A stretch of DNA of 64,000 nt from Acidobacteriaceae bacterium. Lineage in GTDB: Bacteria > Acidobacteriota > Terriglobia > Terriglobales > Acidobacteriaceae. The stretch covers positions 84,576 to 148,575 of the forward strand of contig PKXU01000136.1 of assembly GCA_003132445.1 (NCBI GenBank), in the 5' to 3' direction. Made by a program: the position numbers and the translations under genes. Positions 20,379-47,552 of the stretch are shown here, one piece after another (within the stretch, counting starts at the first letter, position 1; each line of letters begins with the position of its first letter). The notes under the pieces were generated by a model that saw only the letters and a program-made list of their open reading frames with translations, had not been told where the DNA came from and searched no databases.

Positions 20379-21056
20379 ATGCACGGCAACTTCCTTCTCT
20401 ACTACATCACCGACCGCACGGCCTTCCCGGGCGACGAAACCTCGCGCCGAAGCCGCCTGTTGGCAAAAATTGCGGAAGCCGCCCACGCTGGCGTCGACTA
20501 CATTCAACTCCGCGAAAAAGATCTTTCGACCCGTGACTTGGAATCGTTAGCTCATGAAGCGGTGAGAGTAATCCGCGAGAGTTGTCCACTGAAAGCTGAG
20601 GGTCGAGAACGAAAGTCTGCGCTGCTGATCAACTCCCGAACCGATGTCGCTCTCACCGCTCGCGCCGACGGCGTGCATCTCCGCTCCGAGGACGTCTCTC
20701 CGGAAGATGTACGGACAGTATGGCAATGTGTCGCGGGCCCTCGCGATCCTGAAAACTCACGCCAAAAACCGCTGATCGCAGTTTCCTGTCACTCAGCGAC
20801 AAAAGTAACCCAAGCCGCCGCCAGCGCAGCGACCTTTGCCGTTTTCGCCCCCATCTTCGAAAAAAAGGACGCGTCACCTGCAGGCTTGAAACTTCTTCGG
20901 GAGGCATGTGTCGCAAATATTCCAGTCCTCGCCTTGGGCGGAATTACTTTAGCCAACGCCCAGTCCTGCCTGGCAGCCGGAGCAGCCGGCATCGCCGCCA
21001 TCCGCCTTTTCCAGGAAAAGGACATTGCCGAAGTTGTGGAACAATTGCGCGGCTAG
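20379..21056 (+). CDS. thiE: Thiamine phosphate synthase
   Basis: YYITDR, VDYIQLREKDL, LALGGITLANA motifs. Confidence 0.88.
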   Translation: MHGNFLLYYITDRTAFPGDETSRRSRLLAKIAEAAHAGVDYIQLREKDLSTRDLESLAHEAVRVIRESCPLKAEGRERKSALLINSRTDVALTARADGVHLRSEDVSPEDVRTVWQCVAGPRDPENSRQKPLIAVSCHSATKVTQAAASAATFAVFAPIFEKKDASPAGLKLLREACVANIPVLALGGITLANAQSCLAAGAAGIAAIRLFQEKDIAEVVEQLRG

Positions 21057-21083
21057 CCCATCCACTTCGCCCCGGTCTTCAGA
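21051..21083. repeat. Left copy of 33-bp direct repeat (32/33 identical) flanking a 1.6 kb insert
   Basis: ggctagcccAtccacttcgccccggtcttcaga, repeated at 22628-22660 with one mismatch. Confidence 0.9.
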
Positions 21084-21300
21084 CCGCAGGAGCAGCAGTG
21101 TTTTACGTGTTTTCAGCGAGTTATAGTTTCCAGAAAAGCGTATAGTTTGCGGCTAAGTGGCAGTCAGGTGCCAGTAAGTTTTTCAACATGAACACGAATC
21201 GAGTTTGTTGTCAATCCACAAACTCTCTAGTCAACTAGGGGTCAGCCCGGATAGAAGTGCTGATTGATCCAACTCATAATCGGTTTGAACCCGGAGAAGA

Positions 21301-21912
21301 GTGATGACCTGTATTGCCGCTTTGGCTCTTCAACTTCTCAGCAAGACCACTGATGCACACGCAGCGATTTTTTCGCGCGAGTGGTGGATCACCGTTTTTT
21401 TGGTGGGCCTTGCCATACATCTCCTTGCGTCATATTTGAAGCCGCATCTGGATCAAATCGGAGGTTGGTTTTCACGAGCTTGGACCAACAGGAATGAGGC
21501 GCGTGCCAAAGCACGGCAGGAACGAGTTGACACCCTCAAGCGAAGTCGGAGGGCAAAAGCGAATGCGACAACGGAAGAGCTCCGCGCACGTCTTTCAGGG
21601 CTTCAATGGATGGCTTTCTCCACTGTATTCCTTGTCGTATTCGTAACTTCTCCATCCCCCCATCACCGGTGGGACAATATCGCTATCCTGATTATCACGA
21701 TATTCGTTCTAGTCTCAGGAGCTAATGCGTTTTCTAAAGGAAACGACATCCACATTGACATGCTTGAGGCAGAGGAACAACAGCGTGAGGCACAGAAAAA
21801 TCGTATCGAAGCGGAGATGGAAGAAACTTTGTCGCAACTAGGACTACCGGATGACAACGGTGACCCAAAAGGCCCTTCAGACAGCACTTCCTTGCGCGGC
21901 AGGGTTGGTTAG
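21301..21912 (+). CDS. Hypothetical membrane/coiled-coil protein
   Basis: Complete ORF, hydrophobic segments separated by charged helical stretches; no family recognised. Confidence 0.6.
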   Translation: MMTCIAALALQLLSKTTDAHAAIFSREWWITVFLVGLAIHLLASYLKPHLDQIGGWFSRAWTNRNEARAKARQERVDTLKRSRRAKANATTEELRARLSGLQWMAFSTVFLVVFVTSPSPHHRWDNIAILIITIFVLVSGANAFSKGNDIHIDMLEAEEQQREAQKNRIEAEMEETLSQLGLPDDNGDPKGPSDSTSLRGRVG

Positions 21913-21924
21913 AGTTTTCAAGCT

Positions 21925-22469
21925 ATGACAATCGAAGCGTGGAACATACTGCTCAGTTCAGTGATCTTGGTTTTGACGACGGCTGGAGGTCTGTGGCTCA
22001 AGTACGTTGTTGACCAACAATCGAAGTCAAAAGACACGGCTATTCAAGCACTCGAAGGAGTTGTCAAATTCAAAGATGCTCACATCGCCTTGAGGGTAAC
22101 ACTGCCCCTGCAATAGCAAAAGCCTACACTGACATGAGGGGGCACGCCAATCTGATGACCGAGGAATACCAAAAACTGTCGGCGCAGTTTGAGGAAGTTA
22201 CGCAAGAACAACACGCGGCTCGACACACGCTTCTAGTAAAGATTCTCGCGGGTGAAATTGTAGGCTGGAGAACAGCAGCCGAAATCATACAAGAGAGCGT
22301 TGGGAAGTTGGTTGATGATGAGACTATCGACCCTAAGTTTGCGGCTGAACTTCAGAATAAGTTCATCGACGGTCTTAAGACCACCGCCGAGCAAATGCGT
22401 CGGGCGATAAACACTGAGCTTGGCATCATCGTGGAAGGACGACTTGATGGAGAGACTCCAGAAACTTGA
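21925..22469 (+). pseudogene. Hypothetical single-TM coiled-coil protein interrupted by an apparent -1 frameshift near 22086-22100
   Basis: ORF 21925..22116 (…KFKDAHIA|LRVTLPLQ*) continues in another frame as EGNTAPAIAKAYTDMRGHANLMTEEYQ… into ORF 22134..22469. Confidence 0.6.
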
Positions 22470-22627
22470 GTGAGGCAGGCCGTGCGGTCATCACCTGAAG
22501 GCAACCGAACCAAACACGGCCCTTACCCATCACAGGCAGAGCGTTACAACGTTTTTCGAGTGCCGATGGTGATGTGTCACTACTTCGACTACGTCTCCCG
22601 GTGGGCTTTAGCCCCTGAGGTCAGAAT

Positions 22628-22660
22628 GGCTAGCCCGTCCACTTCGCCCCGGTCTTCAGA
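22628..22660. repeat. Right copy of 33-bp direct repeat, forms the 3' end of the YdeI-family gene
   Basis: ggctagcccGtccacttcgccccggtcttcaga; encodes LKTGAKWTG* on the minus strand. Confidence 0.9.
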
Positions 22661-23103
22661 ACCTGCATCACCTTCGCCAGCCGCCGCTTCTTCGTTTCGT
22701 CCTGCTTCGCCCCCGCAATCCAAACAGCAATTTCTTTTTTGTGAGTGAAGGGCAACTTGTCCCATCGTTCCCGCGCTGCCTTGCTCTTCGCCAACTCTTT
22801 TTTCAGTTCCGCCGGAGCCTCCACGGTGCGCGGCTCGATATCTCGTTCCATCACTACTTCGACCACATCACCCGTCCTGGCCTTCGCCCCTTCCCGCATC
22901 GTCTTGTTCACGGCCATTCCGTGGCACCCTCCCATCGGCATTAACGACGATCTGAACGGAAAGCCGTTGATCATCCCCCCTACTGGCACGCGCGCCCGCG
23001 TGCCAAACGTTTTTGGCACATCAAATGGGGCGTTGAGCCAAGCCGCCGAATTTCCTGCTTCGCCCTCCAATTTCACCTTGAATCGTAGCTTCTTCTCTGT
23101 CAT
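22630..23103 (-). CDS. YdeI/OmpD-associated family protein with DUF1905 domain
   Basis: MTEKKLRFKVKLEGEAGNSAAWLNAPFDVPKTFGTRARVPVGGMINGFPFRSSL...; C-terminal FTHKKEIAVWIAGAKQDETKKRRLAKVMQVL. Confidence 0.82.
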   Translation of the reverse strand: MTEKKLRFKVKLEGEAGNSAAWLNAPFDVPKTFGTRARVPVGGMINGFPFRSSLMPMGGCHGMAVNKTMREGAKARTGDVVEVVMERDIEPRTVEAPAELKKELAKSKAARERWDKLPFTHKKEIAVWIAGAKQDETKKRRLAKVMQVLKTGAKWTG

Positions 23104-23169
23104 TGCACCTCCTCCCGCCATCGGCCGCTGGTAAACTTTATATCTGTTGAAGAAAACCCGGCAACTTCA

Positions 23170-30591: not shown

Positions 30592-30652
30592 TTGCGGTTT
30601 TTTAATTGTTAACTGAGAACTTCACAACCAGGTGCCGTCGAGGTTCATTCAA

Positions 30653-30673
30653 CAATCAGAAATCAACAATCAG
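30653..30673. repeat. Degenerate heptad repeat CAATCAG/AAATCAA/CAATCAG upstream of trpA
   Basis: Direct read of sequence; 7-bp period. Confidence 0.7.
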
Positions 30674-33980: not shown

Positions 33981-34075
33981 TGACTTCCGGTTACTGACTA
34001 CTGATTTTAAAATGGCAGGTCATTCAACAATCCGTAATCAAAAATCGGCACTTCGTTTTATACAATGCGGATGCT

Positions 34076-42742: not shown

Positions 42743-42834
42743 GATTTCTGATTGTCGATTTCTGATTGTTGATTGAAGTGCCAAATGCGACCGGCCATTT
42801 TTTTACAATCAACCATCATCAATCAGAAATCACC
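42743..42834. repeat. Pair of inverted heptad-repeat arrays between moaC and moeA
   Basis: GATTTCT/GATTGTC/GATTTCT/GATTGTT/GATTGAA (42743-42777) and AATCAAC/CATCATC/AATCAGA/AATCACC (42807-42834). Confidence 0.8.
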
Positions 42835-44146
42835 AGTCGCTTCTCATTACCGCTACCCACTCTCCCGCCGCAATGCGCTCTCGATCTTCGGGAATCACGA
42901 TGTAGCAATTCGCACGCGCCGTCGCCGCGATGTCGCCGGAACCCTGCCAGGCAACCAACTCGACCTGCGAATCCTCGAATTCGCCGGAAAGAATGGCCGG
43001 CAGAAAACGTTTGAGTCCAGTCTTGACGCTGATCTCTCGTTTCAGCCGTGCATGAAGGAATTGAAGCTTGCGCGCCGACTGGCCGGTCAATGCCTCCAGC
43101 ACGGGTCGCGCGAAAATTTCGAACGTCACCATGGTCGATACCGGATTTCCCGGTAAGCCGAAGAAATAAGTGGCTCGTCCGGCGCGGCTCTGGGAACCCG
43201 CGCCACACTTGCCAAATACGATTGGTCGTCCTGGCTGAATTTTCGCCCCGGTAAAAAAGAATTCGGCGCTCATTTCCGTCAGCACTTGCTCCACAAGATC
43301 ATAACGGCCCATGGAGACTCCACCGGTCATCAGCAACAAGTCGGCCTTCAGGCCGTCGTCGATCAGCCGGCGCAGTCCTTGCGACTCGTCCGGCGCCACA
43401 CCTAACAGCACTGGTTCACCGCCCGCCGAAAGAATCTGCGCAGCCAGAGAATAACTGTTGGAGTTACGGATCTGAGTTGGACCCGGAGTGGTCTCGACGT
43501 CGACGAGCTCGTCGCCGGTGCTCAACACGGCGACTCGCGGCCTCTTGTATACCTGCAACTGTGCTTTGCCCGCAGACGCGGCCAGCGCCACGGCTGCTGC
43601 ATTCATACGAGCGCGGCGTTCAATCAAGCACGCCCCGGCGCGGGCCTCGGCGCCGCGAGGAACAATATTCTCGCCGGCATCCACGCCCCGCCTGATCTCG
43701 ACCCGCGCCCCACTTTTCGCATCAAGCTGTGAACTGTATTCCACCATCACCACCGCGTCGGCGCCGGTGGGAACCGGCGCTCCGGTCATGATCGATGCGG
43801 CTTGGCCGCTGCCAAGATTGTTCGGGATTTTGTCGAACTGCTCCCCCGCTCTGATTTCGCCGATTACTGCGAGCGTCGCGGGAAGTCGCGACAAGTCCGC
43901 AGAGCGCACGGCATATCCGTCGCGAGTGGAGCGAGCAAATGGAGGAATATCCCGGTCCGCCAGCACCGGCTCAAACAAAATCCGCCCTGCAGCGGCTAGC
44001 AATTCTACGGATTCGGTTCGGCCCTCCCCAACTTGGCTGGCCCGAATCAGTTCAGCCTGGCCCTCCACCACTCGGCGGGCGTCTTCAAAACTCAACACAA
44101 CATTCACGGCTGCGACCGACATGAATGCAATGATACGACACAGCAT
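42830..44146 (-). CDS. moeA: Molybdopterin molybdenumtransferase
   Basis: RDIPPFARSTRDGYAVRSAD, IMTGAPVPTGADAVVMVEY, VLSTGDELVD, FFGLPGNPVSTMVTF. Confidence 0.95.
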   Translation of the reverse strand: MLCRIIAFMSVAAVNVVLSFEDARRVVEGQAELIRASQVGEGRTESVELLAAAGRILFEPVLADRDIPPFARSTRDGYAVRSADLSRLPATLAVIGEIRAGEQFDKIPNNLGSGQAASIMTGAPVPTGADAVVMVEYSSQLDAKSGARVEIRRGVDAGENIVPRGAEARAGACLIERRARMNAAAVALAASAGKAQLQVYKRPRVAVLSTGDELVDVETTPGPTQIRNSNSYSLAAQILSAGGEPVLLGVAPDESQGLRRLIDDGLKADLLLMTGGVSMGRYDLVEQVLTEMSAEFFFTGAKIQPGRPIVFGKCGAGSQSRAGRATYFFGLPGNPVSTMVTFEIFARPVLEALTGQSARKLQFLHARLKREISVKTGLKRFLPAILSGEFEDSQVELVAWQGSGDIAATARANCYIVIPEDRERIAAGEWVAVMRSDW

Positions 44147-47452: not shown

Positions 47453-47552
47453 GATGGTTGATTGCTGATTTATGATTGCTGGTTGAACCCCAAACCCAAA
47501 ACGTTCTTAGGGTTTTCAATCAAAAATCAGGAATCAAAAATCAGCAATTTCT
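47453..47552. repeat. Inverted heptad-repeat arrays filling the queE-queC spacer
   Basis: GATGGTT/GATTGCT/GATTTAT/GATTGCT/GGTTGAA and AATCAAA/AATCAGG/AATCAAA/AATCAGC, with inner AAACCC/GGGTTT. Confidence 0.8.

What the first reader, a model, noticed from the sequence alone, without database searches (positions are those of the whole stretch)
21051..22660. 1.6 kb insert bounded by a 33-bp direct repeat that duplicates the 3' end of a YdeI-family gene
ggctagccc[A/G]tccacttcgccccggtcttcaga occurs at 21051-21083 and 22628-22660 (32/33). The right copy encodes the C-terminus (LKTGAKWTG*) of the minus-strand YdeI gene; the left copy encodes LKTGAKWMG* and overlaps the thiE stop. The ancestral state was probably convergent thiE and ydeI with stops overlapping in CTAG, later separated by an insertion that regenerated the gene end, as att-site duplications do at tRNA 3' ends. 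The insert holds two hypothetical coiled-coil/membrane genes and appears less GC-rich than its flanks, but carries no integrase, so it may be a mobilised passenger or satellite element.
Basis: partly seen in the sequence, partly recalled or inferred. Interest (0 to 1): 0.75.

Follow-up and report, generated by a model that had tools for sequence, protein, structure and literature searches.

The report
Small foreign insert between two genes
In one bacterial genome, about 1.5 kb of foreign DNA has landed exactly where two neighbouring genes overlap; a 33-base copy of the landing site, made in the process, leaves both genes whole. It looks like a small, probably immobile genomic-island remnant rather than a new kind of element.

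Summary
The 33-bp direct repeat (32/33) is at 21051-21083 and 22628-22660 and far exceeds chance. The order lysine-decarboxylase-like gene, thiE, ydeI (minus), FGE gene is conserved in the genus, and three genomes carry an empty site with the thiE and ydeI stops overlapping in CTAG/TTAG. The window's two flanks joined through one repeat copy reproduce that site. The 1,544 bp between the copies is foreign: GC is 49.9% against 56.5 +/- 1.9%, and its tetranucleotide distance exceeds all 521 sampled genome windows. Its two membrane/coiled-coil genes have no credible relatives in phage, plasmid or genome collections; the second has a frameshift. So this is a foreign insertion with a 33-bp target duplication. 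The mechanism is not settled. No integrase lies on the 195-kb contig, the site recurs nowhere else, and no integrase-bearing element occupies it in relatives. The genome encodes about 30 tyrosine recombinases and also Ku, so both a decayed site-specific element (CIME-like) and end-joining capture remain possible. I favour the decayed element slightly. Current mobility, or mobilisation in trans as a satellite, has no positive evidence. Ordinary; low to moderate interest.

The parts
20379..21056 (+). thiE (thiamine-phosphate synthase); its stop overlaps the left repeat copy
   Evidence: PF02581 E=2.3e-32; synteny in the genus
21051..21083 (+). left copy of the 33-bp direct repeat; non-coding after the thiE stop; probably the displaced original ydeI 3' end (would read LKTGAKWMG*)
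21084..22627 (.). 1,544-bp foreign insert, GC 49.9%
   Evidence: absent from empty sites; most atypical of 521 sampled genome windows
21301..21912 (+). insert ORF1, 203 aa, membrane segments plus charged stretch, no credible relatives
21925..22469 (+). insert ORF2, ~180 aa, N-terminal membrane segment and helical region; frameshifted near 22092 (reads as 21925-22116 and 22134-22469)
   Evidence: and reading of the frames; no relatives
22600..22621 (.). GGGCTTTAGCCCC hairpin, a dispersed palindrome/terminator-like sequence of this genome, next to the right copy
   Evidence: similar hairpins before the ydeI stop in several relatives
22628..22660 (+). right copy of the 33-bp repeat; encodes the ydeI C-terminus LKTGAKWTG* on the minus strand
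22630..23121 (-). ydeI-family gene (DUF1905 + OmdA)
   Evidence: PF08922 1.2e-16, PF13376 1.3e-15; 82% identical to G170

Best explanation
A fragment of about 1.5 kb of foreign DNA, carrying two membrane/coiled-coil genes of unknown origin, was inserted in this lineage at the point where the convergent genes thiE and ydeI overlapped by their stop codons. The event duplicated 33 bp of the target. The left copy keeps the end of thiE and the right copy keeps the end of ydeI, so neither gene was damaged. Shown: the repeat, the empty site in relatives, the foreign composition, the intactness of both genes, and the absence of an integrase. Inferred: the enzyme. The likeliest single route is site-specific integration at the 3' end of a protein-coding gene by a tyrosine recombinase, followed by loss of the integrase, which gives a CIME-like remnant. 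End-joining capture is a close rival.
For: Empty sites in G124 (CGCGGCTAGCCAGTCCACTTCGCGCCCGTCTTCAGAATCTGC), G176 and G037 match the window's flanks joined through one repeat copy. The gene order is conserved in most genus members that keep ydeI, usually with 0-170 bp between thiE and ydeI. Both copies include GG+CTAG, the thiE Gly-stop, so both descend from an overlapping-stop site. The single mismatch lies in the unconstrained left copy, and most relatives have the right-copy base G. The insert is the most atypical of 521 windows. Relatives lack the insert genes. For the att route: the duplication contains a gene 3' end, the length falls within the 8-60 bp described for tyrosine-recombinase elements, protein-gene 3' ends are described targets, and CIMEs lose the integrase but keep attL/attR (PMC5704250). 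The genome encodes about 30 tyrosine recombinases.
Against: No integrase or relict on the contig or in the insert. No other occurrence of the site or the insert in the genome. No integrase-bearing element at this site in relatives. Only one instance is known. Ku is present, so end joining is possible. The hairpin beside the right copy resembles ydeI downstream flanks of other genus members, as expected if the right side came from another strain's ydeI.
Confidence: 0.45

Rival explanations
1. End-joining capture: a staggered break (two nicks 33 bp apart) at the thiE/ydeI junction was filled in and joined by Ku/LigD around a foreign fragment. This is a one-off scar, never a mobile element.
For: Ku is encoded. 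There is one unique event, no mobility genes and no second site. The insert has no terminal inverted repeats.
Against: 33-nt overhangs are long for a random break. The coincidence with a gene 3' end is unexplained, except that only insertions sparing both genes would survive.
Confidence: 0.25
2. Homology-based entry: an incoming molecule carrying a ydeI 3' end next to the insert genes recombined with the resident ydeI, by single crossover or homology-facilitated illegitimate recombination, leaving the old ydeI end beside thiE.
For: The hairpin directly beside the right copy resembles ydeI downstream flanks of G156, G163 and G159. The process is known in bacteria (PMC3240628).
Against: The right copy shares the thiE-type GG and the Gly codon GGC with overlapping-stop sites, not with the hairpin-type flanks I inspected. 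No genome among 45 of the genus has the insert genes beside ydeI. ydeI and its neighbours all have genus members as nearest relatives.
Confidence: 0.17
3. Local partial tandem duplication of ydeI, followed by replacement of most of the extra copy with foreign DNA.
For: A 21/24-nt ydeI-like patch at 22577-22600 lies in the order expected of an eroded copy. Only 3 of 960 genome windows match ydeI as well.
Against: Against the whole 10 kb of flanks a match this good is not unusual (4 of 60 controls). No other ydeI remnant is in the insert. It needs several events.
Confidence: 0.06
4. Assembly chimera in a draft, probably metagenome-derived genome.
For: The genome is a 203-contig draft, no relative with the insert is known, and reads were not available.
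Against: Both flanks belong to one syntenic block. The copies differ by one base, so the longest shared word is 23 bp. The insert would have to be joined twice.
Confidence: 0.05

Closest known systems
Cis-mobilizable elements (CIMEs), decayed ICE/IME remnants (PMC5704250)
   Same: Foreign DNA without integrase or transfer genes, flanked by direct repeats, one of which restores the 3' end of a target gene
   Different: Only 1.5 kb, no partner element at the same site, and no proof that the repeats are att sites
Microcin H47 genomic island of E. coli (PMC3191183, PMC5426353)
   Same: Small island flanked by direct repeats and lacking its own recombinase
   Different: 13 kb with 144-148 bp imperfect repeats and experimentally shown excision; here nothing is known about excision
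Products of end-joining capture or homology-facilitated illegitimate recombination (PMC3240628)
   Same: One-off acquisition of a foreign fragment
   Different: These predict no specific site; a clean 33-bp duplication at a gene end is not their usual signature

Membership tests
Integrase-type genomic element / CIME | Flanking direct repeats of about 8-60 bp, one restoring a gene 3' end | tested here: met
   33 bp, 32/33; the right copy completes ydeI
Integrase-type genomic element / CIME | Empty site in relatives equal to flanks joined through one repeat | tested here: met
   G124, G176, G037
Integrase-type genomic element / CIME | An integrase in the element, or an element with integrase using the same site | tested here: not met
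   none in the insert, on the contig or at the site in relatives; absence is expected inside a CIME itself, but no partner element was found
Integrase-type genomic element / CIME | Recombination between the repeats (excision, circle) | not testable with these tools
   needs reads or PCR
Phage satellite | Phage-like genes or relatives in phages | tested here: not met
   no hit in the phage collection; PHROGs hits only marginal
DDE transposon / IS | Terminal inverted repeats and a transposase | tested here: not met
   no terminal inverted pair at the insert ends; no Pfam transposase in its ORFs

The most novel reading that the evidence does not exclude
A minimal 1.5-kb cargo element that is moved in trans by one of the host's tyrosine recombinases, using the thiE/ydeI stop overlap as its attachment site.
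Probability: 0.06. Interest if true: 0.6.

Novelty: new member of a known kind. Interest (0 to 1): 0.22.

Why it matters
It is a clean example, verified by synteny, of foreign DNA entering at overlapping convergent stop codons with both genes spared. If the repeats recombine, it would be one of the smallest integrase-less islands. As it stands it is a small ORFan insertion of the kind that makes up much of bacterial accessory DNA.

Tried and rejected
Pfam, PHROGs, PADLOC and NCBIfam on the insert ORFs gave nothing credible. ORF1 hits in other families of the class are short, E about 0.001-0.009, and were judged chance. Seven attempts on viral contigs failed on the server side, so a viral relative in IMG/VR is not excluded. 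The second 24-nt ydeI-like patch was tested against real genome windows and judged probably chance. A 1.28-kb stretch between thiE and ydeI in G159 (L053) was checked as a parallel insertion; it has unrelated genes, no repeat and runs of N. Core-type inverted repeats were sought in the joined junctions; the script carried one extra G at the join, so I draw nothing from it. No Rfam family over threshold. No tRNA in the window.

Full report
OBSERVATION. The repeat GGCTAGCCC[A/G]TCCACTTCGCCCCGGTCTTCAGA lies at 21051-21083 and 22628-22660, 32 of 33 identical. Its 23-bp exact core, allowing three mismatches, occurs only twice in the window and never in 100 shuffles. In 864 kb of the same genome, other direct repeats of similar strength 300-8000 bp apart look like dispersed palindromic intergenic repeats or repetitive coding stretches (this sorting was by eye).

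ANCESTRAL STATE. The gene order lysine-decarboxylase-like, thiE, ydeI (minus strand), FGE-sulfatase-like gene is conserved in most genomes of the genus that keep ydeI. Usually 0-170 bp separate thiE and ydeI. Joining the window's flanks through one repeat copy reproduces this site. The nearest relative by ydeI, G170 (82%), has a 129-bp gap, so the overlap is not universal.

DIRECTION. Both copies contain the thiE Gly-stop bases GG and CTAG with the Gly codon GGC, a combination tied to the overlapping arrangement; the non-overlapping relatives I inspected have other Gly codons there. The single mismatch is in the left copy, which is non-coding beyond the thiE stop; most relatives carry the right-copy base. 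The left copy is therefore best read as the displaced original end, drifting without constraint (inference).

INSERT. The 1,544 bp between the copies have 49.9% GC against 56.5 +/- 1.9% in 521 genome windows of equal size, none lower, and the largest tetranucleotide distance of all. ORF1 (203 aa) has hydrophobic segments; ORF2 (~180 aa) has an N-terminal hydrophobic segment and is broken by a frameshift near 22092, either decay or a sequence error. Neither has a relative in Pfam, PHROGs, PADLOC or NCBIfam worth naming, in plasmids or phages, or in two genome-collection scans. ORF2 is absent from 398 other family genomes; sampled searches of the phylum (ORF2) and class (ORF1) gave only weak, short matches. 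IMG/VR could not be searched because the server gave no answer.

MECHANISM. No integrase match lies on contig C201, and none in the insert. The genome has 34 integrase matches, many on short contigs, so recombinases in trans exist, but none sits by a similar site, and no relative carries an integrase gene at the ydeI end. Ku is present. Tyrosine-recombinase elements use repeats of 8-60 bp, may target 3' ends of protein genes, and decay to CIMEs (PMC5704250). An integrase-less island that excises is known (PMC3191183, PMC5426353). The anatomy fits a CIME-like remnant, but the same scar could come from end-joining with fill-in or from homology-based entry. I give these about 0.45, 0.25 and 0.17.

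COMPLICATIONS. The hairpin GGGCTTTAGCCCC next to the right copy is dispersed in the genome and stands in the same place before the ydeI stop in several relatives. This could mean the right side came from another strain's ydeI. The GG/GGC evidence speaks against that, and dispersed hairpins at gene ends make coincidence plausible. A 24-nt patch at 22577-22600 resembles inner ydeI; it is unusual against ydeI alone (3 of 960) but not against the whole flanks (4 of 60).

VERDICT. Real, correctly described, ancestral state verified; ordinary in kind. The claim of a mobilised passenger or satellite is without positive evidence.

Noticed in passing
window 22600-22621 and about a dozen places in G000 (L002, L004-L009, L012, L015): GGGCTTTAGCCCC(TGAGGT) palindrome is dispersed in this genome and recurs at the ydeI end in relatives; other palindromic families (GTCATCCCGAGC..., GGGGACAGCCG...CGGCTGTCC, GCGGACGCATTCGTCCGCC) are also frequent.
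   Followed up: partly
L053:216-1497 (G159): A different 1.28-kb stretch (FtsX-like permease fragment and a membrane ORF, with runs of N) separates thiE and ydeI in one relative, without a flanking repeat.
   Followed up: partly
G000 contigs C180, C197, C14 and many short contigs: 34 tyrosine-recombinase matches; C180 carries three integrase genes in a row on a 4.4-kb contig, and many others lie near contig ends, suggesting repeated mobile elements that broke the assembly.
   Followed up: no
window 30645-30671, 34020-34046, 42798-42838, 47516-47542: Short AT-rich repeats of the type TCATTCAACAATCAGAAATCAACAATC recur at several places in the window.
   Followed up: no
window 22092: Frameshift splitting insert ORF2; decay or sequencing error cannot be told apart without reads.
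   Followed up: no
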